64,000 bases of DNA, taken from Stachybotrys elegans. Its lineage: Eukaryota > Ascomycota > Sordariomycetes > Hypocreales > Stachybotryaceae. Below are positions 26,708 to 51,010 of the stretch, piece after piece (positions within the stretch are counted from its first letter, which is position 1; each line of letters starts with the position of its first letter). The position numbers and the translations under genes are program-made. Under the pieces are notes generated by a model. The model did not search any database. It was not told the DNA's origin and saw only the letters and a list, made by a program, of their open reading frames with translations. Where the stretch lies: NCBI GenBank assembly GCA_020746835.1, contig JAGPNK010000008.1, forward strand, positions 806,001 to 870,000, written 5' to 3'.

Positions 26708-27617
26708 CTAGCCGCCCAGGATATTTCTCTGAAGACAGTTCAAAATCTCAACACCGGTACCGTAGGTCGACGACAAGCATTGACTAGCGCTACCTGAAGC
26801 CAAGGGGCCGAGGGCAATGGTACAGAGGGGCAGAGCCGAGTTGAGGGCTCCGACACTTGTCTGGACAACAAGGTTTTGACAAGCCTGAGGCAACTGGGTG
26901 ATGCAGATATCAGCCAAGTTGGTATCGACGCAGTTAAGAATGTCGCGACCGAGAACACTGGTGGCCAGGTTGACGGTACACCTTGCGACGTTGCCGACGT
27001 TGTAAGCACCGAGAGAGATGGAGCATAGCGTTGCTTGGGTAATGGCCTGCACGCCAGAAAGGTTGGCCAGTTGGGTGCATGCGCTGGGTAGTGCCCCCGA
27101 GCAATAAGGTTGGCTAACTGCAGCACCACACTGAGAGCCGGTAGGAGTCGCAACCGCGAGCCCCAGATTTCTCTGGAGGCAGTCGACAATGCCGAGACCA
27201 GTTGTAAGTGAAGTGATGGTCTGTGTCAGACAAGTCAAGACAGTACCTAGAGCGAGCGGTCCGAGCGCGGTTGTACACTGTGCTAGACTGATGCCATTTT
27301 GCCCAATGCTGAGCGTGTTGCCATTAAGAGTGGCAAGGTCCAAGCAAGCATCGGGAAGCTGGTTGACACAGTAGCCACCAAGTCGAGTTGTCAAGCAGTT
27401 CACAATAGATTGTCCAGTAGTAAAAGTACTGATAGCCGAGCTAAGCAAACATGTGCTGAGACCGATGAGCGAGCCGACGCTGCCAATAGCCAGGTTACAA
27501 GTGACAACCGGAGCGAGAAGAGCCAAACCATTGTAGTTTCGCAAGTTCAAGCAAGCCTGGGGAAGCGTGTTGGTGCCGCCGCAACCCGAAGGTGCAGATG
27601 TTGCGACAGGAGCACAG
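26708..27617 (-). other. C-terminal four-unit Cys-rich module of the giant protein
   Basis: The last 300 residues contain four tandem units of about 65-80 residues sharing the plan C-x(3-7)-LPxAC-x-L ... C-x3-LG ... C ... I(V/L)xC(L/V). The units begin near 27600, 27380, 27125 and 26925. Each has five or six cysteines, while the thousands of residues upstream have almost none. The segments between cysteines are hydrophobic and rich in Leu, Ala, Gly and Ser. The protein ends ILGG directly after the last unit. I know no named domain with this pattern. A disulphide-bonded, possibly surface-active or ligand-binding tip is an inference. Confidence 0.8.
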
Positions 27618-30600
27618 GTTCTTGTACTACCTGTGGAAGACGAGCGGATGGTCGTGGCACTGACAAGAGTAGCAGAAGATGTAGTGCGTATGCTGCTTGA
27701 GGTGGTTGATGCAGGGCTGGTGGTTGATGAGTGACTAGTAGTGGTTGATGCGTGGCTGGTAGTCGTTGGTGTGGGACTGGTGCTGGTGGAGGTGCTGGTA
27801 GTGGTTGATACACTGGTGGTAGTGCTAGAGGTAGTGCTAGAGGTTGATGCACTGCTGGGAGATGATGTGGTGGTTGACACGGTGGTGCTGCTGGGCGTTG
27901 ATGTGTTGCTAGGCGTTGACGTGCTGCTAGGCGTTGATGTGCTGCTGGGCGTTGATGTGCTGCTAGGCGTTGACGTGCTGCTAGGCGTTGATGTACTGCT
28001 AGAGGTTGATGTACTGCTAGAGGTTGATGTACTGCTAGAGGTTGATGTACTGCTAGAGGTTGATGCAAGGCTGCTGGTGGTTGACGAGTAAGTACTGGTC
28101 GAGATATGACTGCTAGTTGACGTCTCGCTGCTAACCCCGGGGGTGTCCGTAGAAACATGGCTAGTTGAGTGACTGCTGGAAAGGAGGGTGCTCGATTCAG
28201 CACCGGGTAGGCTGCTTGTAGTAGAATGTGTGGTGGAATGGGTAGAAGGAGTAATAGAAGATGCCGCGGAAAGCGTACTTGACGCCTCTGCACTTGACGA
28301 AGAAATGGTAGAATGGCTGCTTGATGCCTCTATACTCGATGTCTGAGTTGTAGAATGTGTAGTAGAAGGGGTAACAGGAGAGCCAGTGGAAAGCGTACTT
28401 GACGCCTCTGCACTTGATGAATAAATGATTGAAGGGGTGGTGGAATGGCTGCTTGATGCCTCTACACTCGATGTTTGAGTTGTAGATTGTGTAGTTGAAG
28501 AGGTAACCGGAGAGCCAGTGGAATAAGTACTTGATGACTCTCCGCTTGATGAATGAGTGGTAGAATGAGTAGTGGAAGGACTGCTGGACACCTCTATGCT
28601 CGATGAGCGAGAGATAGAATCGGTGGTAGAAAGGAAACTTGATGCCTCTTGGCTAGAGGAGTGAGTAGTAGACTGTGTGCTCGATGCATCTTGGCTCAAG
28701 GACTGGGTAGTGAAATAACTACTTATTGTCTCTTGACTCGAAGAACCAGTAGTAGAAGTGGTATGGGTACTTGACGACTCTCCGATTGAGGATAACGCGG
28801 TGGACAGACTGCTTAGCACCGATTCGCTCGATGTAGGAGTGCTGGTTTGGCTACTTGAATGAGTGGTTGAGTGAGTGCTCGAGTAGTAACTGGTGGCCTC
28901 GGTACTGCTTTGCTGGGAAGCGCTGCTTGAATTAACAATCGACTCAGAGCTGCTGGTGTAGCTGGTTGACTGAGTCGTTGGGCCAGAACTGGCGAGGGAC
29001 GTGGTTGAATGGGTACTTTCGGATGTGGAACTGCTGTAGGTAGATGACTGAGTGGTGGGATGTGTGCTCTGCGACTCTGTGCTACCATAGCTGGTCGAAT
29101 AAATACTTTCGGAGCCTGAGCTGACAAGGTTACTAGTAGAGTGAGAGGCACTAGGCCCAGAGCTACTGTAGGTGCTTTCGGACCCTTGGCTGCTGTGGAT
29201 TGTTGAATGGCTTGTAGAATGAGTACTCTCAGACTGTGAGCTGGTGAAGTAGCTGGTGGACGGTGTGCTTGCAGCCAAGGAACTTTCAGATACACTGGAT
29301 GAATCAGTGGTGGAGCGACTGCTGCCAGAAGGAGAAGTGCTCGAACTCTCACTGCTCGCGTAGGTGCTCTCAGACTGGGAAGCTATCGTGGCCTGACTGC
29401 TCGTGTGAGCACTTTCAGAAGTGATTGAGCCACTGCTGGTATGCGTGCTTGCTGAATCAGAACCCGCTGTGGTATCGCTGGTCGTATGGCTGGTTGTGCG
29501 AGTGTTTTCTGACAGAGTGCTGGATTCGGAGCGGAAGCTAGATTCTGATTGAGAGCTGGTTTCAGAGGGGGGGCTGACGGAATGACTAGACGAATGACTA
29601 CTCGTGTACGTGGTTCCCGAGGGCGAGCTGATGTCGGCAAGAGAAGGAGAGGAACTAGTTGAGTCGCTGCTACTAGAAGGGCTGGTGCCACTGGAGTATG
29701 AGCTCGTTGCAGGAGTGCTTGAATACGTGCTGGCTGATTCTGAGCTCCTGTCCGCATAAGAAACGCTTCCTGACTGCGAGGTAGCGGATGAGCCGGATGA
29801 ATAGCTGGTGGGCTCAGAGCTTATGGATTGACTGCTGGTACGCGAGCTTTCAGAAGAAACAGTGCTTTCCGAACTAGATGTGCCCGTAGAAACGAAAGCA
29901 GCAGAAGAACCTGTGGAGTAGCTGTAGCTGCTACTAGCTGTGGAATGACTACTCGTGTGAGAGCTTTCCGAATTTGCAATGCTTCCCGAGGACGAGGTGC
30001 TTTCAGCAAGAGAAGTATCAGAGCGACTGGTTGTCTCAGATTCGCTTCCAGAGTAAGTGGTTCCCGACTGTGAGCTGCTCTGTGAAAGAGAAGTCGAGGC
30101 CGTATCGCTACTGCCGGAGTGGGTAGTCGTTTGAGAGGTACTAGTTTCGTAGCTGCTGCTGAGAGAACTCGTGGAGTGAGTAGTAGACCCCGCGGTGCTA
30201 CTTGAAGCTGTGCTTCCCGTCTGAGTGCTAGAAAGCCACTCACTACTAGAATGAGTGCTTGCAGAGTTCAAACTGCTTGCAGTAACAGAAACTCCAGAGA
30301 AAGTGGTCGCAAGAGACTCATTCAATTCGGAGTTGCTGCTGCTGAGTTGGCTCGTAGACTGAGTGGTAGACTCCCCAGTGCTATCAGGGTGCGTGGTTCC
30401 GGTATGAGTACTTCCAGAATAGGTGCTGGACTGGGACTGACTGCTGGATATCGAGCCGCTACTAGAGCTAGAGATTTCAGAGAGGGTGTCCGACGCTGAA
30501 GCAGTACTAGAACCAGTGCTGCCAGAGTGGGTGGTGGAAGCCGAGTGGCTGCTGCTATCAGTGGTTGCAGAGTAAGAGTCACTGGACTGATGGGTGCTGG

Positions 30601-33600
30601 TTGCAGATGTAGCAGTATACGGGGTGGAGGGAACCTCAATGAGAACGGTCCCAATAGTTCCAGTACCAGTTGGCTCCAGAGTGATAGTAGTGGGCGCGGA
30701 GACAGTACCAGTTGCGGTGACGGTTGTGAAGGGACCTGTGAACCGCGGCGTCTCAACGATAACTGTGCCGGTTGCAAAGGTGCCTGTGGGCGAGAGCGTG
30801 AGGGTCTGAGGAGTCGTGCCGCTGTACGGGCGAGTAGTCGTGACGTAAGGACCACTAAAGGCACTGATAGGACTGCTGATGATCACGGTTCCGGTTCCGC
30901 CAGGAGAAACTGGTGGAACAGTGACGGTGGTAAGAGTGAAGCCTGGTCCGGCAGTTACAATAGTGGTATAGGGACCTGTAAAGGCGGCTGCTTCCGGAGT
31001 CTCGACATAGACGGTGCCGGTATTGTCACCGGAGGCTGGAGACAGTGTGAAGGTGATTGTTCCCGTGCCAGAATGAGGCCTTGTGATGGTAGTGTAGGGA
31101 CCGGTGAAGCCTGCTTGTGAAGGGACGTCCACAATGACAGTACCGATCGTGCCTTCACTCTGCGGATTGAGAGTAACAAGCCTTGTTGTGTTGCCAGAGT
31201 AAGTGCTTGTGATGGTGGTGAACGGGCCAGTGAAAGCAGTTGCAGCGGGGGTTTGGATGAAGACAGTTCCAATGGAACCGCCGCTTGCAGGGTCCAGCGT
31301 TAGCGCCGTAGGTGTAGGTCCGCCATACTCGCTGACGATTGTGGTGTATGGACCAGTGTAAGCAGCAGGAGCTGGAGTCTCGACAACAACAGTACCGGTC
31401 TGATCTGTGCCAAGGGGATCGAGGGTGAAGGTCGTCGGGGCAGTTCCCGTGTACGGCCGAGTGACCGTGACATAGTTTCCGCTGAACTGCGGCCTGTAGA
31501 CGATGACGGTACCCGTACCAGTGCCGCCTGCGGGCTCCAAGGTGGCGGTACTGGTCGTGTTGCCGTCATAGGTTGTGGTGGTTGTGATGTAGGGACCAGT
31601 GAAAGCGGACTGGGCCGGGGTTTGGACAATCACTGTACCAAATGTGCCGCCGCTCGCAGGTTGCAGAGTAATGGTTGTCAGAGGGCCAGAGTGCGCGCTT
31701 GTGATTGTTGTGTATGGGCCGGTGAAGGCCGGCTCATTCACAATGACTGTACCGGTGCCACCGTTGCTAACAGGCGGAAGAGTCTGGATAGACGTCGAGA
31801 CGCCGGTGTAAGGTCGGGTGATGGTTGTGTAAGGCCCTGTGAATGGCGGTTCGTAAATGACGACGGTACCGAGAGTTCCACCGCTTGCAGGCTCAAGAGT
31901 AGCAGTGGACGTACTGGATCCTGTGTACGGCTGAGTGATTGTGGTGTATGGGCCGGTAAAGGCGCCAGGAGCAGGCGTGTTGATAACCACAGTACCTTCT
32001 CCGCCGCTGACTGGCTCGAAGGTAGCAATTGATGTTGTGGTTCCAGTGTAAGGCCGCGTGATAGTAGTGTAGGGGCCGGTAAATCTGGGGGTGTTGACAA
32101 TGACTGTTCCAAGCTGTCCGCCACTGGCCGGCTGTACTGTCGCAATAGACGTAGTTATACCGGAATATCCGGTCGTGATGGTTGTGTAGGGACCAGTGAA
32201 TGGTGGGATGTTGACAATGACGGTGCCGGTTCCTCCACTGACAGGCTCCAGTGTCTCGATGGAAGTTGAAACACCAGTATATGGTTGGGTGATTGTGGTG
32301 TAGGGTCCGGTGAAGGGAGGCGTGTTGACGATGACTGTGCCCGTGCCGCCATCGCTAAGGGGCTCAATTGTAGCCAGCGAGGTTGTGCTGCCAGTGTATC
32401 CACGAGTAATAGTAGTGTAAGGGCCATTGAAGCCAGCAGGCGTTTGAACGATGACAGTGCCCGTTCTATCACTTCCAGATGGCGGCAGCGTAACAGCAGA
32501 AGCGCTAGTTCCGGTCCAAGGTCGCGTAACGGTGGTGAGGGGACCAGTGAAGCCTTCAGGAGTCTCGATAACAACCGTGCCGATAGTGTCAGAGCCGGCC
32601 GGTGGCAAAGTAAGCGTTCCAGTCGTTGCCCCTCCATAGCCCCTGGTGATAGTGGTGTAGGGGCCCGTGAAAGCAGAAGGTGCCGGAGACTCTATAACAA
32701 TAGTTCCTGTACTATCACCGCTTGCCGGCTCGAGGATAATGGTAGCCGTTGTTGTCCCGGTGTAGATTCTCGTGACAGTGACGTAAGGGCCAGTGAATAC
32801 AGAAGCACCAGGGGTCTGAACAATGACTGTGCCAGTTTGGTCACCGCTGGCGGGTTCTAGCGTAATCGTTGATGCAACAGAACCTGTCCAGGCGCGTGTC
32901 ACGGTAGTGAATGGCCCTTGGAAGGGAGGGGTGTTGACGATAACTGTGCCTGTGCCGCCGGTGATGGGCGGGAGGGTGACAATGGAAGTAGATACTCCCG
33001 TGTAAGCGCGCGTGATGGTGGTATAAGGACCGGTGAATTCAGCCTCTGGGGTGTTGACGATAACGGTTCCAGTGCCACCCGGAGTAGCAGGCTGGAGAGT
33101 TGCCAGAGAGGTCGTTGTTCCAGTGTAGGCTCGTGTGACTGTGGTATATGCTTGAGCTTCAGCTTCAGGGGTCTCAACGATAACTGTTCCAATACTTCCC
33201 CCACTAGCAGGAGCCAGAGTGACGGTGGAAGTGCCAGTGCCGTTATACGGACGCGTGATGGTAGTGTAAGATGCAGCCATCGCCTGGGGCGTTTGGACGA
33301 CAACAGTGCCGGTGCTATCGCCACTAGCAGGTGCCAACGTAAGGGTAGACGCGGCTGTTCCAGTGTAGGGCGCGTAGACAGTCGTGTAAGGACCAGTGAA
33401 TCCCAAGGGAGTCCGGATAACAACTGTGCCCTGTGTACCACCAGAAGCAGGATCAAGGGTCAGGGTAACAGGCACTGCGCCGTTGTAGCCCTCCGTGATT
33501 GTCGTGTAAGGGCCAGTGAAAGCAGCGGCCCGAGGCGTTTCGATGATGACTGTACCGGTCTCTCCACTGTTCGCTGGAGGAAGAGTTGCAGTTCTGGTGC

Positions 33601-36600
33601 CAGTTCCGTCAAAGGGCAACGTGAGTGTGGTATAAGGACCAGTGAAGCTCCTGACGGATGTGGCAGGGATCTCGATGATAACTGTTCCAGTGCCGCCGCT
33701 ACCACTGGGTGGCAGCGTGATTGTACGGGAAACACTTCCAGCGAGGGTCTCGGTGACATACGGTCCGGTGAAGCCTGAAGGTGTCTCGATGTACACGGTT
33801 CCAATAGAACCACCACTGGCAGGAGCCCGAGTGATAGTCAACGTGCCTGGCCCGTCGTGTCCCACTGTTACCGTAGTGTAGGGACCAGTGAACTCTCCTG
33901 AAGAGGGAACGTTCACGATGACCGTGCCGGTAGGCGTGGGATCCGACGCAGCTGGCGCAAAAGTCTGTGTCGAAGCGACCGAGCCTGTATAGGTGACGGT
34001 GCGCGTAATGTAGGGGCCAGTAAACACATTCCGGGATGGAATCTCGACAAGGACGGTACCTGTAACATCCCCACTCGAGGGATTGAGTGTGATAGTAGTG
34101 GTAACGCTGCCGGTACCCTCAACGGTGACTGTGGTGTAAGGGCGGGATGCTGCAGTTGGGGTCTCAATGATGACAGTTCCAGTTTGATCTCCCGAGGCTG
34201 GGGCCAGGGTGACGGTTCGCGACGAGGCACCTCCAGCGGTGACAGTGACATAAGGCCCAGTGAAACCTTGAGGAGTCCTGATGATGACAGTCCCTGTAGA
34301 GTCGCTGTTGGCAGGCAGGAGCGTAGCTGTAGTAACCCCTGTACCATCGTAACCAGCGTAGACCGTTGTGTATGGCCCAGTGAAACTGGGACCGCGCGTT
34401 GGAGTTTGAATAATGACAGTACCGAGTGTCCCGCCGCTGGCTGGTGCAAGAGTAACAGTGGAAACCACCCACCCGTCGTACCCAGCCTCGATTGTCGTGT
34501 ATGGGCCGGTGAACGCAGGAGCTGAGCTATCAGCAGGAGGGGCGGTTGGGCGCGGGGTCTGGACAATGACAGTGCCAATAGAATCACCAGGAGAAGGACC
34601 GAGAGTAACCGTGGTGGGCACAGTGCCATCATAAGGTGCAGAGATGGTGACATACGGTCCAGTGAACCTAGGTGGTGTCGTGGGTGTTGGCGTTGATGCT
34701 TCTGGTGTCTGGACAATAACTGTTCCGACAGAGTCGCCACTGGCTGGGTTGAGAGTTTGCGTAGTCGCCACGGTGCCTGTGTAAGGTGCGGTGACCGTCG
34801 TGTAAGGACCAGTGAAGGAAGCGGCCTGCGGAACCTGCACAATAACTGTTCCAACGGGATCACCAGGGCTTGGCGGCAGGACGATGGATGATGTAACAGT
34901 GCCAGTGTAGCCTTGAGTCACGGTTGTGTACGGTCCCGTAAAGGGAGCTGGCTCTGGCGTATGAATGATGACCGTGCCAACTGAGTCTCCCTGGCCGGGA
35001 TCCAAGGTTGCTGTTGTAAGCTGAGAGCCTGGATAACCCTCAACAATGGTGGTATAAGGACCAGTGAAGGATGAGTTGAGGCGAGCTGGAGTTTGAACAA
35101 TGACCGTCCCCACAGAATCGCCGTACGCAGGAGTTCTGGTAATGGTCTCTGTCTGTGAGCCACCGTATCCTTGGGTGATAGTTGTGTATGGACCGGTGAA
35201 CGCGGGAGCAAGGGGCGATTGAACAACGACGGTAGCAGTTCCATCGGGTCCAGGCGGCAGCGTAATGGTCGACGCCATGGACCCTGCATATGGCTCGGTC
35301 CTTGTCACGTAGTAAACTGGCGCTGCTGTTGTGACAGTTTGGATGATGACCGTCACAACGCCGTCAGGGCCAGGAGGTAAAGTGACTGTGTTTGCAGCAG
35401 CACCACCTCGGTAGACAGTGGTTGTTTGGCGAGGAGGCTCTGTAATCGGTATAGACGGGGAGCTTGCGACAGGGGTCTCTACAATGACCGTGACGGCTCC
35501 GTCAGGGCCGGCGGGCAGAGTCACAGTTTGAACCACAGATCCATCGTAGCCCTGAGTAACCGTGGTGACGGGGAGGGCGACGGAAGTGCCGGTAGGAACA
35601 GGAGCAGCGGTTTGAGGTGTCTCGACAATGACGGTGGCAACGCCATCTGGTCCTGGCGGTAGAGTGATTGTGGTTCGAACAGATCCGGTGTATCCACGTG
35701 TGACTGTCGTGACGGGGCCAGTAATGCCAGCCGTTGTACGCGCAATTGGCGTTTCGACCACAACAGTGACAACTCCGTCGGGGCCTGCAGGGAGCGTGAT
35801 TGTTTGAGCCGCTGATACTGGTTCTCCGCGAGTGACAGTGACGACGGGGCCTGTGGGAGCGTAGGTCGGTGTCTGGACAATAACAGTCTGTGTGCTCCCG
35901 CCTGAAACCACTGGTAGAGTGACGGTTCGAGTAACCGAGCCGGTATAAGCCTCGGTGATGGTGACAACAAGCAAAGAATCAGAGACCGATCCTGTAGCGG
36001 TTGGTGTCTGGACAATGACAGTAACAGTGCCATCAGGACCTGGAGCCAAAGTGATGGTCGAGGTAGTTGCACCATCGTAGCCATTCGTGATCGTAACCAG
36101 AGGCCTGCTCGTAGGTGCAGCACCGTTGGGGGTCTCGACAATAAGCGTACCGACAGTGCCGCTTCCGACGGGAGGCAGCGTCAGTGTCTGAGTGATTGTG
36201 CCATCGTATCCCCGAGTGATTGTCTGATAGGGACCAGTAAATGTATTGGCGGGGGTCTGCACGACAACAGTGGCCACCCCGTTAGAACCGCGGGGCAGGG
36301 TGAAGGTTGATGCTGCAGGGCCAGCCTCTGTAATAGTCACATAGGAAATGCCGCTTGCTGTGGGTGTCTGCACGACAACAGTCACAACACCGTTGCTTCC
36401 CACCGGCAGGGTATTGGTGGTTGCGACTGCACCGTCATAGCCGTTCGTGATTGTGACATAGGAAGCAGTCACAGACGCGGTCACGGACAAAGCAGATTGT
36501 CGTGGAGTCTGCACAATAACAGTTCCAAGAGACTGTCCTGAGCCTGGAGGAACAGTCAGGTAGCCAGTTGAAGTACCATCATATGCCAGTGTGACTGTCG

Positions 36601-39600
36601 TATACGGTCCCGTAAAAGCAGCCTCTGGCGTCTGGATAACAACTGTCGCAACTCCGTCTGATCCTGCAGCCAAAGTAGCGGTCCTAGTGGTGGTACCGGT
36701 CCAGGAGCCAGTGATGGTCGTGTAGGAGGCTGCTGAGGCAGTCGGAGTTTCAACAACAACCGTAGCGACGCCGTCTGTGCCAGGTGCCAAAGTGAAAGTC
36801 GTAGGGCTGGCTCCATCGTAGCCTCGTGTGATGGTTGTACGAGCCCCAGTGAAAGCTGCGGCAGGAGTTTCGACTACGACGGTGCCTACGCTTCCACCTG
36901 GTCCAGGAGGAAGGGTGAGAGTGGTTGTCGCAGTTCCGTCGTAGGGCCTTGTGATGGTGACGTAGCGGCCAGTATAAGCTGTAGGGGTCTGAACAATAAC
37001 CGTACCAACAGAGCCACCCGGGCCAGGATCCAGAGTGATAGTATTGGGCTGTGTGCCGTCATATCCATCAGTCACGGTAGTGTAGGGTCCAGTGAATGTG
37101 CCTCTTTGGGGCGTCTGAACAATGACAGTACCAGTGCTGTCGCTTGAGCCGGGCGCCAGAGTGAGCGACCTCGTTGTTGTGCCGGTGTATGCTTCAGTAA
37201 CTGTCTGGTACGGGCCTGTAAATGTACCGGCGCCCAAAGGAGTCTGGACAATGACTGTTCCGACCGAGCCGCCTGGTCCGGGAGCAAGAGTCAGGGTATT
37301 CACGGCTGATCCGCCATAGCCGTTGGTGACTGTAACATAAGGGCCGGTGAAAACATTCGTAGCTTGAGGAGTCTGGACGATAACTGTACCGGTAGAGTCG
37401 CCAGGGGCAGGGGCAAGAGTGACTCTGCTAGTTGCTGTTCCTCCATAGCCGTCTGTAATGGTGACATATGGACCAGTAAATTGTGCGGGACCTTGAGGGG
37501 TCTGAATAATGACTGTTCCGATCGAGTCGCCGGAGCTGGGACGAAGGGTGATGGTGGTGGCTGCCGTGCCGGCGTATCCATTCGTAACGGTGGTAAAAGG
37601 GCCTGTGAACGCACCCGATCTGGGTGTTTGAACAACAACAGTTCCGATAGATCCCCCAGAAGCAGGTTGAAGCGTGATTGTAGACACAGTAGGGCCATCA
37701 TAAGCGTCAGTGATTGTGGTAAATTCTCCTGTGAAGATGGGTCGTGGCGTCTCGACGATGACAGTGCCAGTAGAATCCCCTGGACCAGGAGCTTGGGTGA
37801 AAGTTGTGGGGGTTGTTCCACCATAGGCGTTTGTGACAGTGACGTATGGACCTGTGAAAACGGGCTGCGGGGTCTGAACGATGACCGTACCGGTAGAATC
37901 ACCCGGGCCAGGAGCCAGAGATAGGGTCCTGGAGGTGGTTCCAGTGTAGCCCTCCGTGACCGTACGATATGGCCCAGTGAAACCAGCGCCCGGCGTCTGC
38001 ACGATGACTGTGCCAATAGTTCCACTGACAGGGGCAAGAGTGATGGTCTGGCCTCTGGTTCCAGTGCCAACGTAAGGCTCGGTGATGGTTGTGCAAGGCC
38101 CTGTAAAAGCAGCAGGTCGAGGGGTCTGAACAAGGATAGTGCCCAGGGATGCTCCATTCGCCGGCGGCAGAGTCTCAGTTGTGACAACTGAGCCGTCGTA
38201 GGGTTCAGTGACAGTGGTGTATGGGCCGGTGAAGGCTGCTGCAGGGGTTTGGATGATAACAGTGCCCACGCTGCCGCTGACAGGGTTCAATGTGACAGTT
38301 CGTGGAGCAGTGCCCGTGAAAGACTCAGTGATGGTCGTATAGGGGCCAGTAAAAGCAACTCTGGGGGTCTCAACAATTACGGTACCGACACTGCCACCAG
38401 GTCCTGGGGAAGCGTTGCTATCCTAACCGCAGTTCCGTCATATGGTTCAGTAATGGTGCTGTATGGGCCAGTAAAGCTGCCTCGAGGGGTCTGGATAATG
38501 ACAGTGCCGAGTGTGCCACTGACTGGATTCAAGGTCAGCGTTTCCACGGCAGTACCGGAACCAGTATATTCGCTGGTAATGGTTGTGTATGGACCAGTGA
38601 AGGAGCCACCTCCTGTCTGAATGATAACTGTTCCAATAGTGCCACTGAAAGGATTCAGCGTGACGGTGCCCGGGCTGGCTCCGCCCTGGGTGATCGTAGT
38701 ATAGGGTCCTGTGAAACCAGCGGTAGCCGGTGTGCGAATAATGACTGTTCCCTGAGGGCCACTCAGGGGAGCCATGGTAATGGTCTCAGTACCTGTTCCA
38801 GAGTACGGCACTGTCACTGTAGTGTAAGGGCCTGTGAAGGATACTTCCGTGGCCTTGGGGGTCTGAACAATGACTGTACCCACGGTGGCCGAGCCAGCAG
38901 GAGCAAGGGTAACTCTGCCAGTCGTGGTGCCATCGTAGCCTTCAGTGATTGTGGTGTACGGGCCTGTGAAAGAGATGCCGGGCGTTTGGATGATAACAGT
39001 TCCAACAGTACCGCTTGGCCCCGGATTGAGGGTGATGGTTTCTTGTCCGGAGCCATCGTGGCCTTGGGTGATCGTTGTGTATGGTCCAGTGAAGGTAGAG
39101 CCCGAGGACAGGGTCGCACGGGGTGTTTGGATGATCACCGTACCGATAGTGCCGGAGACTGGTGCCAGTGTAAGAGATCTGGTCGAACTGCCGTCATATG
39201 CCTCAGTGACAGATGTGTAAGGCCCTGTAAATGCGGTAGTAGGTGCTTGAACAATGACTGTCCCAATGGTGTCGGAGCCCATCGGAGCCAGGGTGATGAA
39301 GCCCGTTGTAGTACCTGTGTAGGGCTCGGTGATAGTTGTGTATGGGCCAGTAAACGAGCCTTGTCTGGGCTGCCGGAGAATGACTGTTCCCAAAACACCA
39401 CCAGAACTAGGAGGTAATGTTACGGCTTGGGTTGTTGTGCCATCATAGAACTCGGTCACGGTTGTGTAAGGTCCAGTAAAGGTCTCAAAGGGTGTCTGAA
39501 TAATGACGGTCCCGATAGAACCAGAAGCACCAGGCGGAAGAGTGATGGTTGTAGCGGATGTGCCATAGTAACCGTCAAAAATAGTGGTATATGGTCCAGT

Positions 39601-42600
39601 GAACGAAGACGCAGCACCTGTGGCTTGGCTGAGAGTTCCCGAGGAGATTGCAGTAGTGCCGCTAGGGGAGTCGCCAGATGCCGAACCTGAAACAGAGCTC
39701 GAGTGAACAGAAGAAGAGTGAGCATTGGACGAAGTATCACCAGGAGCAGGAATTGATCCTGAGGGGATGGTGACAGAGGGACCGGTAAATGAACCAGCAC
39801 TGGAAGCGGACTCTTCGGGAGAGGAAGTAGCAGGAGAAGACTCATTGGAAGTAGCACTGCTGGAGCCGAAACTGCCATAGGCAGAGCCACTGGGGCCAGC
39901 GCTGCTCACGCTTGCGCCACTGGCAGAAGAAGGCCCTCCCGTGGATTCGGTTGGTGAAGACAACAACCCGACCGAGGAAGACTGCGTGCCTGATGCATTT
40001 GTCGTCGATGGCACAGTAGCATCCGTAGCAGATACTGTTGCGGAGGAGAGTGAAGCCCCTGCAGACGCCGTAATACTTGAACCAGTGGCCTCTGAAGAGG
40101 TTGCACCACTTGCTGCGGAAGACACTTGAGAAGAAGAAGCAGTGGTAGTGGCGGAAGCAGAAAATGGAGTCTGTACAAGCACGGTGCCGATCGAGTCTGT
40201 GACAGGCAGTGTGATTGTTCGCGGGGCTGTGCCATCGTACCCGGTTGTGATTGTAGTGTATACTCCAGCGAACCTAGTCTGAGCAGGAACAAGATAGATG
40301 ATGGTACGAGTTGGCCCACCGTCGAGGAGCGTGTATGTCTGAACCGTTGAGCCAGAATATGTTTGATAGACGGTGGTATAAGGACCGTTGTAAACAGGGC
40401 CGTTGGTGATAGTTGCTTGTGGGTTAGCAACAATTACTGTCCCAACACTGCCCGTCTCAGGGGCCAGGGTAAATGTCTGAGGACCGTTATTGTCACCACT
40501 ATAGTCTTCGGTCAAGGTCAAGTAGGGGCCAGTGAATGAGGCTGAGGGTCCAGTCGGGAAGATGACAACAGTCGTCTGCCCTGAGCCCCCTGAAGGAACT
40601 TGAGTAACAGTGACGGGAGCGGTGTTGCTAACGAAGCCACCAGTGACTGTAGTGTAGCCACTGGGGATTGGCGCTGGTGAGGACGCATGAGAGGTGCCTG
40701 AAGAGTGTCCCGCTGAGGAAAGCGTAGAGGAGGCTGGAGGTACTGCGACCACCACAGTGTTCGTTCCTCCCACATATGTTGCCGAGTTCGTCGTAGTAAC
40801 CGGCCCTGTCAGCCCATCGCTCGTGACCGTGATCGTGATAAAGATACCGCTGGGGTTCGATGTCAAGGACGCGGTAGGGGTAGCCGCCGGTGATGGGACG
40901 ATGATGGCCACTGTGCCTGTTCCTCCGGAGCTTGCTGGCAGATAAGTGATAGTTGTGGGTGTGGAAACACCAGCATCAGTGGCTGTGATGGTAGTGAAGA
41001 CAGCATCAGGCGGGAGAGTTGCTGAAGGAACCCGGGTTGGTGGCACAGCAATCACGATGCTTCCAGTGCCTCCGGAAGCCGTGGGAGGGTAGGTTCTGGT
41101 AGTAAGCGAGAGAACTCCCGGATCAGTTGTTGTAATAGTAGTGAAAGAAGCGCCTGGCGGGATAGAGACTGATCCGGTTTCGGTAGGCGGAACTCCAACG
41201 ACAATTGTTCCTGTCCCATCAGAAACAGTAGGAGGATAAGTCCTGGTTGTAGAGAAAGACAGCCCTGGGTCTGTTACCGTAGTAGTGGTAAAGGAAGCAC
41301 CTAGAGGAATGGACTGAGAGCCCGTCTGGATTGGCGGTACACCAATAACAACTGTTCCGGTCCCCCCAGAAACGGTGGGAGGGTAGGTTCTAGTGGTAGG
41401 TGAAAACAGTCCTATATCGGTTACGGTAGTCGTAGTAAAGGAGGCATCGGGTGGAATGCTTATAGAGCCTGTCTGGGTTGGTGGCACGCCGACAACAATT
41501 GTTCCAGTACCGCCAGAAACCGTCGGGGGATAGGTTCTTGTCGTGGGTTGAAGCAGTGCTGAATCAGTTACAGTGGTGGTAGTGAAGGAGGCGCCTGCTG
41601 GGATAGACAAAGAGCCTGTCTCCATGGGCGGAACGCCAATAACAACTGTCCCAACACCGCCTGACTCAGTGGGAAGATATGTTCTGGTAGTAGGCGAGAA
41701 CAATGCTGAGTCAGTTGCCGTGATGGTTGTGAAAGAGGCACCCGGGGGAATAGTTAGAGAGCCCGTTGGGGTTGGCGGCACTGCAACCACAACAGTAACA
41801 GTGTCTCCGGATTGACCTGGTGGATATGTGATGGTTGTTGTGGTGACCAGTCCAGAATCCGTCGCCGTGATCGTTGTGTAAGCAGCGCCTGATGTAATTG
41901 GGACGGAGCCAGTTCTGTTTGGTGGCACAACCACAACTACCGTTCCGGCTGTTTGAGATGCAGCTGGTGGATAAGTTATTGTTGTTGGCGAGAAGACGGA
42001 GGGATTTGTGGTTGTTATGGTCGTGTACACTTGGCCTGGGATCGCAGAGCCAGTAATGGAAGGAGGTACTGCAACAACAACCGTACCAGTGCCTCCGGAA
42101 GAGGCGGGAGGATAAGATATTGTTGAAGGTTCAAGAAGACCAACTTGGGTGCTGGTAAGTGTTGTGTAGGGTACAGCAACACTGGGAGATGGTGATGAAA
42201 CTGTGGCTGCAGGAACGAAAATGACGACCGTGCCAGGTGCGCCGGCTGAACCAGGAGGATAAGATGCTGTTGAGGGCTCAAGAAGGCCAGCTTGAGTACT
42301 AGTGATCGTTGTGTAAGGTATAGTGATACCGGCGGAGGACAGTGAAGCTGTGGCTTCAGAGACAACAACCACGACTGTGCCAGGCCCACCAGACGTGCCG
42401 GGAGCATATGAGAGAGTAGTTGGCGATGCGACCCCAGAATCTGTGCGAGTAATCGTCGTGTACGATCCACTAGGGTTGAGTGACCCGGTGGTCGGAGGAA
42501 CAACCACAACAACTGTCCCAGTGCCACCGGAAGTGACGGGAGGACGAGTGATCGTAGTCGGGTTGACCAATCCAACACTGGTTGTCGTAACAGTTGTGTA

Positions 42601-45600
42601 AACATCATTGGGGTCAAGCGTGCCTGTAACTGGAGGCGGAACAGCCACAATGACGGTACCGACTCCACCAGATGAGGTAGGAGGGCGAGTGACAGTTGTG
42701 GGTAGTAACAAATTGCTGTCCGTGGTAGTAACTGTGGTGTAAACTGCGCTTGTATCGGTTGTTCCTGTGACTACGGGAGGAACGGCAATAATCACAGTGC
42801 CGACTCCACCAGATGTTGCGGGAGGTCTGGTGACAGTTGTGGGCTGGATCAAACCGCTCAGCGTGCTGGTAGTCGTGATATAAACCGCACTGGGGTCAAT
42901 TGATCCTGTAACCTGAGGCGGAACAGCCACGACAACAGTGCCAACTCCGCCAGATGAGACAGGAGGGCGAGTGACGGTTGTAGGTAGTATCAAATTGCTG
43001 TCGGTGGTCGTGATAGTTGTGTAAGCCTCACCAGGGCTGGTCGATCCTGAGGTTGAAGGTGGAACAGCCACAATGACAGTACCGATTCCGCCAGAGGAAA
43101 TTGGTGGTCGAGACACCGTTATGGGTTGCATCAAATTGCTATCCGTGGTTGTGATCGTAGTATAGATAGCATTGGGGTCAATTGAACCGGTGACCAAAGG
43201 TGGAACAGCAACTATAACAGTGCCTACTCCGCCAGAAGAAGAAGGTGGCCGAGTTATAGTCGTGGGCTGTATTAGGTTGCCCTCGGTAGTAGTGATAGTC
43301 GTGTATACAGCTGAAGGGTTTGGTGTACCTGTAACGGGAGGCGGCACAATAACTATCACAGAACCAACAGCACCAGAAGAGAGCGGCGGCAGAGTTACTG
43401 TTGTTGTTAGTATCGCATTGGCATCTGTTGAAGTGACAGTGGTATAGACAGCCGAGGGGCTTGGTGTGCTTGTAGCCGGTGGGACAATAACGATGACTGA
43501 GCCAACCGCACCGGAGGAAGCTGGCGGACGTGTCACGGTTGTCGGCAGCAATATATTGCTGTCCGTAGAGGTTACAGTAGTATAGAGAGCTGAGGGATCT
43601 GGCGTTCCTGTGATGGGAGGTGGGAGAACAACAATGACGGAGCCAATCGCGCCGGAGGAAACTGGTGGACGTGTCACGGTCGTCGGCAGTATGATGTTGC
43701 TGTCTGTAGAGGTAACAGTGGTATAGAGCGCTGAGGGGTCTGGCGTTCCTGTGATGGGGGGTGGGATAATGACGATCACCGAACCGACCGCACCTGAAGA
43801 CACCGGCGGACGAGTCACCGTTGTAGGCAGGATCAGGTTACTGTCGGTCGATGTGATGGTGGTGTAGATAACCGAATAGCTAGGCGCAGGTGTGGTTATC
43901 GGAGGGACCACAACGAAAATGGTTCCTGTACCCCCTGAAGAAACAGGTGCTCGGGTCACGGTAGTGGGCAATAACAAATTGCTGTCGGTGGTGGTAATTG
44001 TTGTGTAGATTGCTGACGGATCAGGCATGCCAGTTGCCGAGGCGGGGACTGCAATGACAACCGTTACCACGCCTCCCGAACTGACGGCTGCTCTGGTCAC
44101 GGTGGTAGGCAATAGCAAATTGCTATCGGTTGTAGTGACTGTGGTATAGATGATTGGGGGGTTGAGTGTCCCCGTCGCTGATGCAGGCACTCCGATCACA
44201 ACTGTTCCGACACCTCCTGACGAGACAGGCGCTCTGGTTACCGTTGTGGGAAGCGTCAAGCCACTGTCGACCACAGTGATAGTTGTGTAGCTGGCTGAGG
44301 GATCGGGTGTCCCTGTAACCGGAGGAGGGACTCCTATCACCACAATACCCGTACCACCGGAGGTAGCAGGAGGATAGGTGATGGTTGTCGGGCTGAGAAG
44401 CCTTGGGTCAGTGACCGTTGTGGAGCTGTAAGAAGCCGCGGATGGGCCACTGGTAATGGCTGTGGGAGGGACTTCGACCACAACAGTAATAACATCTCCT
44501 GGCATGGAAGGCGGAAGCGTAGAGGTAGACGGCAAAACAAGACCAATATCAGTTCGGGTGGTCGTGGTGTAGCGCACGCTAGAGATGGTTTGAGACGCAG
44601 AACCGGGGGAGCTTGTTACTTGGGACAGGGAGTTTCCAGAAGGCTGACCAGGTACGCCGATTACAACTGTGCCGGGGCCATCAGAAGCACCCGGGGGGTA
44701 GGTGATGGTTGTAGTAGCCGTCAGCCCGGCGTCTGTCACTGTAGTCGTGGAGTACGTGGCTGAAGCTGCAGGGACAGTAGGAGGTGAAATTGGGGGCACA
44801 CCGACCACAACTGTGCCAGGACCACCCGAGGCACCAGGAGAATAAGTTATCGTGATCGTGCTGAACAAGCTGACCTCAGTTCTGGTGATAGTGACATACT
44901 GAGCTCCGGATGGAGCGGTTATCGTGGGTGGCGGCGGAGGAACAATAACCACGACGGTTACAGTACCACCTGGAGACCCGGGAGAGTACGTTATAGTGGT
45001 GGGACTTAGAACACCGGCATCTACTTCCGTGAGTGTAGTGAATGCTCCCAGGCCGGTATTGCTCGAGCCCGCGGATGGAGTAGCTGCACCAGTGGAAGCC
45101 GCAGACTGGCCAGAAGTGGCGGTGCCGGTACCAGGGCCAGAAGACCCGCTCGCTGTACCTTGACTGCCCGAGATGCCCGTAGAATACGGTTGCGCACTTC
45201 CAGAAGTTCCAGGAGATGATGCCGACGGAGATGAAGCTGCCGAGTCTGATGTGGCCAGCGCCGGAATACCAATCACAACCGTACCGGTTCCTCCAGAGGC
45301 GGTAGGTGGGTATGTAATGGTCGTAGTGGCTGTCAGACCAGCACTGGACACAGTCAAAGTTGTGTAAACTGCCAAGGGCGGGGTGCTTGTGGCCTGGGAT
45401 GGCTGAACACCAACAATGACAGTTCCGGTGCCACCAGGAGTTGCTGCGGTATATGTAATAGTGGTGGTTCCAATGAACCTCGGGTCTGTTACTGTCGAGG
45501 TGGTGTAAGGTCCAGTGGGAAAAGGTTGAACACCAATAATGACGGTTCCAGTACCGCCAGGAGTCGCTGGGGCGTAGGTGATAGTGGTGGTTCCAGTGAT

Positions 45601-48600
45601 CCTGCTGTCCGTTACTGTGGAGGTGGTATAAGGGCCTGTTAGCAAACTGCCTGATGGCTGAGTTGGCAAGACGCCAATGATGACTGTTCCAGTTCCGCCC
45701 GAGCTTGAAGGGGGATATGTGACGGTTGTAGGACTGAGCAATCCAATATCCGTCACAGTTGAAGTGACGTATGCTTGACTGTAGGTACCGGTGAGACTTT
45801 GAGGAACCTGGCTTGGCGGCACGCGGACAAGAACTGTCTCGAGACCTCCAGAGCTGGCGGGAGGCAGAGTTTCGGTGGTCAGGCTGAAAACCCCAATGTC
45901 TGTAATGGTGGAAGTAACGCGAGATGGTCCGACTGCGCTAGATACACCTGCGCTGGAGATACCTGTACCGGAAACCCCAGCACTAGATGCGCCGGCATTG
46001 GATGCATCGGTAGAAGACAGGCCAGCACCGGACACACTGGAGCTGGGTTGGCCTGCACTAGATTCGCTGGCAGTAGATGCACTCAAACCTGATGGACCTG
46101 CGCTAGTGATGCCTGTGCTGTAGATACCTGCACTCTGTAGACCTGTGCTGGATATAGCTGTGCTGGACAGACCTGCACTGGGCGCGCCAGGACTGGATGC
46201 GCTTGCGCCGGTGAGACTCGGTTGTTGACCTGGTGTGGAGCTCAGAGTCGCCGAAGGAGATGGGGTAGGTGTGGTTTCCGGTGCAAAGACAACGACGGTG
46301 ACAGGATCGCCTGACTTAGCTGGGGCATAGGTGATCGTAGTGGAACTGGCGAGCCCAGGGCTGGAGATGGTCGAAGTAATAAAAACCTGACCTGAGGTTG
46401 GTGTAAAGCTCTGGATCTGTGACGGTGGCACACCGACAATGACGGTCGCGGTGCCCCGGAGGTAGCAGGCGGGTAGGTAATAGTGGTCGCTCCAACTAGC
46501 CCGATGTCCGTGACAGTGGAAGTAGTGAAGACTTGGCCAGACTGACTGACGAAGCCAGACGCTGGGGTTGGTGGCACAGCGACAATCACGGTGGCCGTAC
46601 CTCCAGGACCTGGCACGTAGGTAATCGTAGTAGTTCGAACAAGTCCCAGGCTAGATTGTGTCACTGTCGTGAATGGACCAGCGAGTGAGCTAGTGGCTGT
46701 AGATGCAGGCACGCCGACAACGACCAACCCAGGGCCACCTGGTGAAGTGGGAGCGTAGGTGATTGTGGTCGAGCTGGAAAGGCCTATGTCGGTGATTGTT
46801 GAAGTGATGAACGATACTGGGATCGTTTCTGATGCCGTTGATGCCGTCGAAGCACTGGCACTAGTGAACCGAGGTGGAGGTGTGCCAATAACCACGGTAC
46901 CCACGCCTCCTGACGAAGCAGGAGGGTAGGTGATGGTTGTCGGGCTGAGCAAACCAGGATCCGTGATGGTAGATGTGACATATGGTCCAGGAGCAGGCGT
47001 CCTAGTGATCCTGGGTGGAGGTACACCAATGATAACAGTTCCAACTCCCCCGGTAGAAAGAGGCGGATAGGTAATGGTTGTTGGGCTAAACAGCCCAGGA
47101 TCGGTGACAGTTGACGTGACATACTGACCAGGAGGCGGCGTACCAGTGGGTTGAGGCGGAGGCGTACCGATGATCACGGTTCCAGTTCCTCCTAGTGAAG
47201 TAGGAGCATATGTGATCGTCGTAGGGCGAATAATTCCAGTCGCGACCAGAGTTGAGGTGACGTATGGTCCCGTGGGCAACGTACCAGTAGCCTGTGGGGG
47301 AGGAGTGCCGATGACAACAGTACCCGGGGCACCGGACGAGCTGGCAGGGTACGTGATTGTCGTAGGAAAGATCAGATTGATATCAGTAACCGTCGTCGTC
47401 ACGTACGGACCAGTAGACGTGCCAGTAGCCTGAGGCGGGGGTGAGCCAATAACGACGGTGCCAGTACCACCCGATGAAGCAGGAGGGTAAGTGATGGTCG
47501 TCGGTTGCAGCAGGCCGATGTCAGTAATGGTAGAAGATGTGTAGGCCCCAGCGGGTGGTGTTCCGGTTGGAGGTGGTGGCGGAACGCCGACCACAATTGT
47601 TCCAGTACCGCCGGCAGACGTTGGTGGGTACGTGATTGTGGTCGTACGCACAAACCCGATGCTTGTCAAGGTCGACGTTACGTATACAACACTGATAGAT
47701 GGCGTCGTGGAGGGTCCTGGAACACTTGACGTGCCTGCACCTGAAGCAGCACCTGAAGGACTTCCGCTTGGCTCAATGCCTGAGCCAACTGGAGAGGAGG
47801 GTGAGCCGGAGGCTCCGGCGTTGGATCCTGAAGACACATCACCAGAAGGAATTGCGCCACTTGGTAACGAAGTCGCTCCTGGAGCTCCAGTGCTAGGTCC
47901 CGAAGGTAGAGGACCGGAAGGGGTCGAAATACCGCTGGGGTTGCCAGACACAAGGGAGGAGGCTGGCGAGCCAGTGTTGGATGCTGAGGGCGATGCTCCA
48001 GAAGGAGCTGCGGAACCACTCCCGCCACCTGGTACCGACGATGATCCTGAAGGCCCATTGTCCGATCCTGACACTTCAGTGCTGGCTCCCGAAGCTTGCG
48101 TATCAGGAGGAGAGATACCACTTGAAACACCTTGTCCCGGAGATACTGACGCTGCTGTGCTGGAACCAGCGTTTGATACAGGCGAAACACCAGATAGCGC
48201 AGTCGATTGGCTGCCTGAACCACTTGCACCTGAGGAACCTGAAGCTCCTACTGACGCAGTATTTGGTGCGGTGAAAGTCGCTCCAGCTGATGTAGACGAT
48301 GGCGGGACGCCGATAATCACCACTCCTGTGCCTCCTGGCGTTGCAGGGGGGTATGTGATTGTAGTAGGTCCTGTCAAACCTGGGCTGGTGACAGTGGAAG
48401 TGGTGTATATGGCGGACACGGGTGGCGTGCCCGTCGGTGTAGGCGGAGGAACACCGATAATCACTGTACCAGTACCCCCAGGGCTCAATGGGGGATAAGT
48501 GATAGTAGTCGCGAAAAGAAGTCCAGTCTCGGTGACGGTCGACGTGATGTACACAGCAGAAATAGGAGGCGTTGCTGTCGGTACCGGCGGAACCGCTACT

Positions 48601-51010
48601 ACCACAACACCTGTGGCTCCGGAAGCCGAAGGCGGGTATGTTATGGTCGTGGGGTTCACCAGCCCAGTGCTTGTGACCGTAAAGGTCGTATACACGGCGC
48701 TGGGAGGGGGCGTGCCGGTCGGTGGCGGCGGAGGAACGGCAATGACAACGGTTCCTACACCGCCAGATGTGGCCGGAGGATAAGTCACCGTCGTAGGGTT
48801 GATCAAACCGGTGTTGGTGATGGTCGAAGTGATGTAGGATGCGGATGGGGGAGGAGTGGCTGTTGGCGTAGGAGGCGGCACAACGACCACCACGGTCCCG
48901 GTTCCTCCAGCAGTAGCTGGAGGGCTAGTGAAGGTGATGGGAGCATTCACAGCATAGTTCGTCTGAGTGATAGTGAGGTAGGTAGCGGCCGAGGGCACAG
49001 TCGCCGTGACAGTCGAAGGAGGCACGGCGACAATGACGGTACCAGGATCACCAGCATTGGTAGGCGGGTAAGTCGCGACGCTGCTCTGAGTGATTCCCGA
49101 ATTCGTGACCGTGTACGTTACGTATGGTCCGGTGTAGGGAGCTGAAGTGACTCCAGAGCTAGCCGGGACGGCGACGATGATAGTTCCTGTGCCTCCGGAA
49201 GATGCAGGTGGGATGGAGTTGCTCTGAGCACGCGTAACAGCGGTGTTGGTGACTGTGTACGTAACGTAGGGACCAGTGAAAGGAACGGTCGACGACGGGG
49301 GGACTGCTACAATCACTGTGCCAGGGCCACCGGCAGAGGCCGGGGGATAGCTGTTTGTAGCGGGTGTCTGGATGGCGTTGTTCGTGACTGTGAAGGTAAT
49401 GTAAGGACCACTAAATGGGGTACTGGGTGTGCTGGGACTGCCGGAAGCACTGGAGCCCGTCAAGGGGCTGGGGGAGGGCGTTGCGGGCACCACTACGATG
49501 ATGGTGCCGGTGCTGTCGGTAGATCCCGGAGCGTAAATGTTGGATTGGACAGTCGAGATCAAGTTGTTGGTGACTGTGTAGGTGACGAAAGGTCCTCGGA
49601 AAGACGAGCTTGACGGGACATTCGTGATACCAGAGCTGGGAACAACAGCTGCGATGACGGTACAGACGCCGCTGGGCGACGACGGAGGGTAGGTCGCTGT
49701 GCTTGGGGCGTTGTTGGTGACAGTGATGGTGGTGCAACCAGTGTACACGGGAGGCACGTTAACGACAACACTTCCTCCGCCTCCCGGACCGCCAAATAGG
49801 AATGTCTCCGTGTTGGGAAAAGCCAGTCCATTTTGTGTTCGCGTCACAGTAACGATGGGGCCCTGGGAATACGACGGAGGGACATCGACAATCACAGAGC
49901 CAACACCGCCAGGGCTTGTAGGAGAAACGGTTTGAGTCACAGGGGCGCTCAGCCCATCGCGTGTTCGAGTTGTGGTGACGAACCCATTTCCTGAGGTATA
50001 ACTGGGAGGGACCTCGACAACGACAGTCCCAGTACCGCCTGGGCCCGGGGCCACAAACGTCTGAGTGTTGGGGCCGGCAAGACCCTCTCGTGTACTAGTA
50101 ACAGTCGTCAGCAGACCAGATGGGGAACCTGTGGTTAGCTGTCCGGGAGGCACGTCGACGACCACGAGGCCAGTGCCTCCAGGGCTTGTCGGGGCAATAG
50201 TACGAGTCCTAGTGTTAGCGAGTCCCTCAACGGTGCTTGTAACTGTGGAATAGACAACGGCAGAATAACTGGGAGGAACCTCGATCACGACGGTACCTCT
50301 ATCGCCCGGCGTGGCAGGAGGGAGCGTCACTGTTCGCGGAACGGTGAGAGTGCCCTCATATACGGTAACGGTGGAGTATGAGCCGTAGAACTGGGGCGGA
50401 AGCTCGATGATGACGGTGCCTGCTTCGCCAGGCTTTAAAGGAGCAACAGTCCTCGTGGAGGGCTGGTCAAGGCCTTCGACAGTTCGCGTTATCGTTTCGT
50501 AAGTAGCGGGCGGGGGCTGCTCGACAATGACGGTTGCGAGATCACCAGGACGCTTGGGAGGGAACGTCCTTGTCACAGGGGCGGTGACATCGGGATCAGT
50601 GATTTGAATCGTGGTATAGGGGCCGACATATGCTGACTGCAAGCCAACAAGGCTATCGAATCATGCGTCAGGTTTCCATCATGTCACAATATCCCAAGCA
50701 TCAAGAGCGCAACAAACCTTGTCAAAGTGATGACCGTGACTGAAGTATCGATGACGACGGTGCTCACCGTCTTGGGAGCATCGGTAATGTGGATGATGAG
50801 CTCGGGGTTGATGACGAGCTGGGTGTTGTGAGGCACGTAGGTGCTGATGAGAATGGGATTCTGGAACTCGTACTCGATGGGCTGGAGATCGACGAGGTTC
50901 GGGTTGGGACAAATGTCCAAGGCGGGCAAGCGCATGCGGCCTGGCAAGGCGTCGGCGAGCGACGCCAGAGCCAGGACGGCCGCCGCCGTCGAGGCCCACG
51001 AGAGGCGCAT
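26708..51010 (-). CDS. Giant flocculin/Als-like repeat adhesin, ~8,080 aa, two frameshifts
   Basis: One gene of two exons, 51010-50718 and 50652-26708. The 65-base intron has a CTGAC branch site 18 bases before its AG. The long exon is broken by single-base losses at 46454-46457 and 38406-38409; allowing one base at each gives 24,240 coding bases, 8,079 codons plus stop. Parts in order: signal peptide (MRLSW... to about residue 21); a unique segment to residue 97; 13 variant repeats (TxTxxGLxxPxTxT...GTVIVEVPP); about 50 repeats of YTTSTVTDxGLxxPTTITYPP type, cut by Ser/Ala/Gly linkers; about 75 repeats of FTGPYTTITxGYxGT...GTVIVQTP type; a Ser/Thr-rich stalk of about 990 residues; and a four-unit Cys-rich end. 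The repeats resemble yeast Flo and Candida Als units, so I infer an O-glycosylated surface adhesin. It has no C-terminal hydrophobic tail, hence no GPI anchor. ATG 51010 is the first ATG; upstream in frame there is only a GTG. Confidence 0.9.
27618..30615 (-). repeat. Ser/Thr-rich mucin-like stalk region
   Basis: About 990 codons are dominated by Ser and Thr, with frequent HSTT, SSSES and TSSS words. This is the composition of heavily O-mannosylated, extended stalks in fungal wall proteins. It separates the beta-repeat array from the C-terminal Cys-rich module. Confidence 0.85.
27887..28066. repeat. 18-bp minisatellite in the stalk coding region
   Basis: Ten tandem copies of an 18-base unit, in two subtypes (six GGCGTTGATGT-like, then four AGAGGTTGATGT-like). 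Read on the minus strand each adds six residues (TSTPSS or TSTSSS type). Whole-codon units let copy number vary without breaking the frame. The antisense strand is also open here, a by-product of the repeat. Confidence 0.85.
30616..40570 (-). repeat. Array of ~75 FTGPYTT-type adhesin repeats
   Basis: Tandem protein repeats of about 45-48 residues with consensus FTGPYTTITxGYxGTxxTTxTLxPxSGGxxGTVIVQTP (x variable; shorter in some units). I count 61 units in the segment after the second frameshift site, one across it and 13 before it. A Ser-rich linker interrupts them at about 39610-40150. Units have diverged in DNA while keeping the Thr, Gly, Tyr and terminal VIVQTP positions, which implies selection on the protein. 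The pattern recalls the flocculin repeat (PWTGTFTS...DETVIVIRTP). Confidence 0.85.
38406..38409 (-). other. Frameshift site 2 in the giant gene
   Basis: In a four-base run the frame runs off a perfect repeat (IATLP, then QDLV and an early stop). One more base in the run would give ATLPPGPGGSVGTVIVETP, exactly the repeat consensus, and the following frame stays open to the end of the gene. A sequencing or assembly error or a recent mutation is likeliest. Confidence 0.85.
40571..50652 (-). repeat. Array of ~60 YTTSTVTDxGL-type adhesin repeats
   Basis: Repeats of about 40-48 residues related to the downstream array but with the core Y(T/I)T(S/T)TVTDxGLxxPTTITYPPxxxGGTGTVVIGVPP. The first eight (50652-49690) are of TVEGLxxPxTRT type, the next five (about 49660-48890) of GPYVTYTVTN type, then about 50 of the main type. 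Ser/Ala/Gly-rich linkers break the array at about 48290-47700, 46260-45900 and 45240-45020. A DSNLLLPTTVTRPP subtype (about 42640-44330) is locally homogenised, suggesting recent unit duplication. Confidence 0.8.
46454..46457 (-). other. Frameshift site 1 in the giant gene
   Basis: At a four-base run (CCCC on the plus strand) the reading YPPATSGAP leaves the repeat consensus. One added base gives YPPATSGGTATVIVGVPPSQ, matching neighbouring units, and the new frame stays open for over 8 kb. It is the same kind of lesion as at 38406. Confidence 0.85.
50653..50717 (-). other. Intron 1 of the giant gene
   Basis: Donor GTTTGT after codon-phase-2 AG, branch site CTGAC, acceptor GATAG. Splicing joins TVITLT to SLVGLQSAYVGPYTT and puts the signal-peptide exon in frame with the repeat exon. 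Unspliced, the first exon stops within a few codons. Confidence 0.85.

What the first reader, a model, noticed from the sequence alone, without database searches (positions are those of the whole stretch)
26708..51010. A single ~24-kb gene encoding an ~8,080-residue surface repeat protein
Four separate reading frames are one gene. The intron restores the signal peptide, and two single-base lesions, each within a repeat whose consensus dictates the missing base, restore the rest; the final coding length is an exact multiple of three. It would be among the largest fungal surface proteins. Automatic annotation would probably report three or four unrelated hypothetical proteins, one of which would lack a secretion signal.
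Basis: partly seen in the sequence, partly recalled or inferred. Interest (0 to 1): 0.9.

Follow-up and report, generated by a model that had tools for sequence, protein, structure and literature searches.

The report
Giant fungal agglutinin-like repeat protein
One fungal gene of about 24 kb, split in this assembly by two small frame breaks, encodes a roughly 8,080-residue secreted protein built from some 138 adhesin-type repeats; similar giants occur in Fusarium, but this one has different ends.

Summary
Three long minus-strand frames and a short first exon form one gene. A profile of the 38-residue repeat finds 137 units over 18 bits, all in those frames. At each break the repeat stops and resumes at the same profile column (29/29, 23/23). 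No usual intron explains either break. The 65-nt intron is supported by a paralogue on contig C9 with an intron at the same place and phase.

The repeats match Pfam Candida_ALS. Order: signal peptide, short N-domain, about 138 repeats, Ser/Thr stalk, four Cys modules; no GPI-like tail. The unbroken paralogue (2,147 aa) shares both ends but has no repeats.

Giants of this kind are not new: 32 proteins of 3,563-7,674 aa carry related repeats, 29 under Fusarium names. None shows the N-domain or Cys modules. This is a new variant of a known kind.

A cell-wall adhesin or spacer fibre is most likely, but inferred. Whether the breaks are assembly errors or real mutations is undecided.

The parts
50718..51010 (-). 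Exon 1 (293 nt): signal peptide and a ~75-residue N-domain
   Evidence: 11-residue hydropathy windows starting at residues 3-14 average 1.1-2.3; N-domain shared with the C9 paralogue, E 1.1e-4, 32% identity, local score 98 against shuffle mean 28.5, sd 5.5, max 65 of 2000; no Pfam match at E<=0.1
50653..50717 (-). 65-nt intron, phase 2, GTTTGT donor, CTGAC branch-like site, TAG acceptor
   Evidence: paralogue has a 44-nt intron at the same place and phase, both in context TTGACAAG|GT
46452..50652 (-). Frame C: 26 ALS-type repeat units over 18 bits
   Evidence: PF05792 13 stretches, E 6.8e-40
46452..46455 (-). Frame break C to B, inside one repeat unit (column 29)
   Evidence: no usual intron
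38407..46455 (-). Frame B: 49 units over 18 bits and one of 10.3 bits
   Evidence: PF05792 22 stretches, E 1.3e-45 (scanned 38380-46431)
38407..38410 (-). Frame break B to A, inside one repeat unit (column 23)
   Evidence: no usual intron
30629..38410 (-). Frame A, repeat part: 62 units over 18 bits, median spacing 41 residues
   Evidence: PF05792 53 stretches, E 1.1e-128
27623..30628 (-). Ser/Thr-rich stalk, ~1,000 residues, 42% Ser and 22% Thr
26711..27586 (-). Four Cys modules (27365-27586, 27098-27364, 26900-27097, 26711-26899), then stop 26708-26710
   Evidence: 27-35% identity to one another with 11 invariant columns; the C9 paralogue matches the C-terminus at E 4.4e-14, 31% identity and holds two modules; no Pfam at E<=1, no PDB relative
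47685..48302 (-). Longest non-repeat linker (206 residues); others at 45919-46278, 45049-45261, 39604-40164

Best explanation
A single gene for a secreted, Thr/Ser-rich (so probably heavily O-glycosylated), cell-wall-associated adhesin or spacer fibre. Shown: one gene, a signal-peptide-like start, about 138 repeats of the Candida_ALS type, Ser/Thr stalk, four Cys modules, ends shared with a repeat-free paralogue. Inferred: each repeat is a small beta unit; the array is a long extensible rod whose many units give multivalent, force-strengthened contact, as proposed for Als repeats; the Cys modules or the N-domain hold the chain in the wall. The frame breaks are most likely leftover consensus errors in a repetitive stretch, less likely real recent mutations.
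For: Repeat register is continuous over both breaks; PF05792 in all three frames; the 41 genome-wide PF05792 matches at E<=0.001 all lie in this gene (only the best 120 candidates were scored); intron and ends confirmed by the paralogue; dN < dS in all three frames; AlphaFold2 gives three strands per unit, pLDDT 82 but pTM 0.40 (41 of 116 listed repeat triples used); Als repeats are described as beta domains that unfold under force, with adhesion rising with repeat number (PMC6023273, section 3.2.2 read); ALS loci are often misassembled (PMC6499006, passages).
Against: No ligand-binding N-terminal adhesin domain and no GPI-like tail were found, so wall attachment and adhesion are not shown. 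In Drechmeria coniospora none of 10 ALS-domain genes was highly transcribed (PMC4792172, section read). No expression data here. In 200 kb of contig C60, 10 of 10 frame-switching ORF pairs had a possible intron under a lenient rule (7 of 10 under a strict one) against 0 of 2 here, so errors may be concentrated in this gene or the breaks may be real. Fold searches gave no convincing match.
Confidence: 0.6

Rival explanations
1. The gene is really broken in this strain: the two breaks are genuine recent mutations and only a truncated N-terminal product is made.
For: Under a lenient intron rule 10 of 10 frame-switching ORF pairs in 200 kb of contig C60 could be explained by an intron, against 0 of 2 here; under a strict rule 7 of 10. 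The paralogue is unbroken.
Against: No in-frame stop in the rest of about 24 kb and dN < dS in every frame; repeats are where assembly faults are common in ALS loci (PMC6499006, passages).
Confidence: 0.3
2. Three or four separate genes.
For: Three frames are listed mechanically as separate ORFs.
Against: Frames B and A begin in mid-repeat at the column where the upstream frame stops; by eye they show no signal peptide at their start.
Confidence: 0.02
3. The breaks are introns or programmed frameshift sites.
For: Many bare GT-AG pairs exist (166 and 33).
Against: None has a usual donor and branch site, and an intron would cut a piece out of otherwise complete repeats. Slippery signals were not tested.
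Confidence: 0.05
4. A passive wall spacer or surface coat without adhesive function; the conserved ends are the working part.
For: The repeat-free paralogue keeps only stalk and ends; the three frames hold 4 Lys in 7,984 residues; no ligand domain recognised.
Against: The repeat type is that of adhesins.
Confidence: 0.3

Closest known systems
Giant repeat proteins of Fusarium, some called 'agglutinin-like protein 2' or DUF6923 proteins (32 found, 3,563-7,674 aa; 29 under Fusarium names, 3 without an organism name)
   Same: Similar to the query part of frame A at 29-32% identity over 65-100% of it; my repeat profile finds 35-66 units in each at domain E<=0.01; similar size; many start with a signal-peptide-like stretch (by eye)
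   Different: 15 of 32 carry DUF6923 in the precomputed Pfam column and 27 of 32 end in a DGARC signature; none shows the N-domain or Cys modules; their repeats lie further apart (median 54-98 residues). Of two scanned with Pfam, P0031 has Candida_ALS below its cut-off (21.3 of 25 bits) and P0024 not at E<=0.01, so the repeats are related rather than the same
Candida Als adhesins (PF05792 repeats)
   Same: Pfam repeat family, signal peptide, Ser/Thr stalk
   Different: No NT-Als adhesive domain and no GPI-like tail found here; far more repeats than in yeast Als proteins (yeast counts recalled)
Paralogue on contig C9 (L004:2750-9237)
   Same: N-domain, intron position and phase, Ser/Thr stalk, Cys modules
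   Different: 2,147 aa, two Cys modules, no ALS-type repeat (best 1.1 bits), no frame break
ALS-domain proteins of Drechmeria coniospora (10 genes)
   Same: Described as large cell-surface glycoproteins with ALS domains in a nematode-endoparasitic fungus (PMC4792172, section read)
   Different: Sequences not compared here
Als-group adhesin candidates of Metarhizium (Mad1, Mad2) and Trichoderma
   Same: Repeat structure and Thr-rich region are described (PMC9026816, passages)
   Different: Sequences not compared here

Membership tests
Proteins with Candida_ALS repeats (PF05792) | Repeats over the curated cut-off of 25 bits | tested here: met
   419.7, 153.9 and 135.6 bits in frames A, B, C
ALS adhesin family (features as given in PMC8712946, passages seen) | N-terminal NT-Als domain (Candida_ALS_N, PF11766) | tested here: not met
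   Not in the Pfam scans of exon 1 (E<=0.1) or frames C, B, A (E<=1). The genome-wide search found none either, but its controls were silent too, so that part is inconclusive
ALS adhesin family | Signal peptide | tested here: met
   By hydropathy only; no signal-peptide predictor was available
ALS adhesin family | GPI anchor addition signal | tested here: not met
   No hydrophobic tail: the last four 17-residue windows score 0.03-0.56; no GPI predictor available. A further unseen exon is not excluded
Fusarium-type DUF6923 giants | C-terminal DUF6923 (PF21959) | tested here: not met
   Absent from frame A at E<=1 and from the C-terminal 304 residues; in this genome it was found at two other places
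Own two-member family of N-domain plus Cys modules | Both ends and the phase-2 intron shared | tested here: met

The most novel reading that the evidence does not exclude
A secreted protein family defined by its ends (N-domain and Cys modules), in which one member has acquired or expanded about 138 ALS-type repeats in the middle while its paralogue has none, and in which a related repeat class carries an unrelated end (DUF6923) in many Fusarium giants: fungal giants are assembled by swapping end caps onto a common kind of repeat rod. (Lowered from 0.55 to 0.5 on re-checking, because the two Fusarium giants scanned fall below the Pfam cut-off for the repeat.)
Probability: 0.5. Interest if true: 0.55.

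Novelty: new variant of a known kind. Interest (0 to 1): 0.42.

Why it matters
It adds a roughly 8,080-residue member, with a different pair of ends, to a little-studied class of giant repeat proteins, and supplies a natural comparison: a paralogue in the same genome with the same ends but no repeats. That makes the role of the repeat rod testable. It also shows how frame breaks in long repeats could hide such genes from annotation.

Tried and rejected

The frame-break control rests on 200 kb of one contig, on pairs not known to be one gene each, and on a rule that can hide real frameshifts: 10 of 10 pairs had a possible intron under the lenient rule, only 7 of 10 under the strict one. It does not settle error against mutation. 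Scores of the Cys-module and N-domain profiles in their own training sequences are by construction and are not used as evidence.

Papers: ten searches. In their listings I saw no paper on this protein; only asked for DUF6923 (0 papers) and for a giant agglutinin-like protein in Fusarium (0 papers). The library is open-access only. Passages seen of PMC4791367, PMC6308950, PMC3320895 and PMC3843709; the last says that no predicted GPI protein of F. graminearum resembled known adhesins.

Full report
What was claimed. One gene of about 24 kb on the minus strand (26708-51010), read in four frames because of one intron and two small lesions, encoding about 8,080 residues of a surface repeat protein.

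Is it there. Yes. The long frames are A (26708-38422), B (38377-46650) and C (46242-50660), and exon 1 is 51010-50718. A profile grown from the repeats (38 columns) finds 62, 49 and 26 units over 18 bits in A, B and C, plus one of 10.3 bits in B, and none over 18 in any other stop-to-stop frame of 30 or more residues in the window; shuffled pieces (40,665 residues) give none, best 2.9 bits. The strongest evidence for one gene is register: C stops at column 29 at position 46452 and B starts at column 29 at 46455; B stops at column 23 at 38407 and A starts at column 23 at 38410. Of 166 and 33 bare GT-AG pairs that would join the frames, none has a usual donor and branch site. I put no base back and joined no frames.

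The intron and the ends. The 65-nt intron (50717-50653) keeps phase. It is supported independently by a paralogue in the same genome. The C-terminal 304 residues match G000:C9:97736-98311 (E 4.4e-14), and exon 1 matches C9:91803-92027 (E 1.1e-4), about 5.7 kb upstream on the same strand. Spliced, that gene has exon 1 of 284 nt, a 44-nt intron in the same context (TTGACAAG|GT) and phase, and a second exon of 6,160 nt: 2,147 residues with no break. It shares the N-domain (local score 98; 2,000 shuffles mean 28.5, sd 5.5, max 65), a Ser/Thr-rich stalk and two Cys modules, but no ALS-type repeat (best 1.1 bits).

Architecture. Signal-peptide-like start; N-domain of about 75 residues without a Pfam match; about 138 ALS-type units with four longer linkers of 71-206 residues; about 1,000 residues with 42% Ser and 22% Thr; four Cys modules of 63-89 residues. 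There is no GPI-like tail by hydropathy. Frames C, B and A together hold 4 Lys in 7,984 residues, and 23 of their 25 Cys lie in frame A, 22 in its last 304 residues.

What family. Pfam PF05792, Candida_ALS, scores 419.7, 153.9 and 135.6 bits in A, B and C, and the 41 matches found in the genome at E<=0.001 all lie in this gene, with only the best 120 candidates scored. They resemble the query at 29-32% identity. BLASTP of the N-domain, stalk and C-terminus gave no match to the 32 at E<=1; profiles of the N-domain and Cys module gave only weak scores (best 4.0 bits, E 0.088, and 0.4 bits). 15 of 32 carry DUF6923 in the precomputed Pfam column, and 27 of 32 end in a DGARC signature. Against a simple equation with this gene: of two giants scanned with Pfam, P0024 shows DUF6923 but no Candida_ALS at E<=0.01, and P0031 shows Candida_ALS only below its cut-off (21.3 of 25 bits) and no DUF6923. 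So the repeats are related rather than the same. In the present genome DUF6923 was found at two other places (C60:2080243-2080905, C12:301688-302341). Related repeat rods thus appear with different ends in different fungi. Membership in the ALS adhesin family proper is not met: no NT-Als domain and no GPI-like tail.

The breaks. In 200 kb of contig C60 (64,074 nt of long ORFs), 10 of 10 frame-switching neighbour pairs had at least one possible intron under a lenient rule and 7 of 10 under a strict one, against 0 of 2 here under either. That hints that the breaks are unusual but does not settle the matter: the control is small, the pairs are not known to be single genes, and a lenient rule can hide real frameshifts. 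PMC6499006 (passages) reports that ALS loci are often misassembled and that some needed Sanger reads even with long-read data. dN is below dS in 76 of 76 usable pairs of 131 in all three frames; this speaks for past function, not for the present state.

How it probably works (inferred). AlphaFold2 on 41 aligned repeat triples gives three beta strands per unit (pLDDT 82, pTM 0.40, so unit packing is not known). Als repeats are described as antiparallel beta domains that unfold under force, and adhesion as rising with repeat number (PMC6023273, section 3.2.2). By analogy the array would be a long extensible rod with many weak contacts, shown on the cell wall by one conserved end. Which end anchors is unknown. 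A purely passive spacer is a live rival, as is a broken gene.

Verdict. The paralogue with the same ends and no repeats is the most useful new fact.

Noticed in passing
L004:2750-9237 (G000:C9): Unbroken 2,147-residue paralogue with the same N-domain, intron and Cys modules but no ALS-type repeats.
   Followed up: yes
52610-53554 (+): Divergent neighbour, 314 aa: signal-peptide-like start, Cys-rich, 60-bp internal repeat (53170-53300) and, by eye, a hydrophobic tail that looks like a GPI signal; no Pfam match at E<=0.1. About 1.6 kb lies between its ATG and that of the giant gene.
   Followed up: partly
L046 (C60:2080243-2080905) and L047 (C12:301688-302341): DUF6923, the end of many Fusarium giants, sits here on other genes; the C60 copy has a Ser/Thr-rich stretch before it and lies about 58 kb from the contig end.
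   Followed up: partly
24538-26399 (+): Convergent neighbour with Zn2Cys6 and Fungal_trans_2 domains in two separate frames, probably exons of a transcription factor.
   Followed up: no
9700-10719 (-): ORF with two C2H2 zinc-finger stretches.
   Followed up: no
54001-64000: G+C falls to 0.42-0.53 against 0.51-0.58 in the rest of the window; one frame of 170 or more codons; possibly a decayed repeat region.
   Followed up: no
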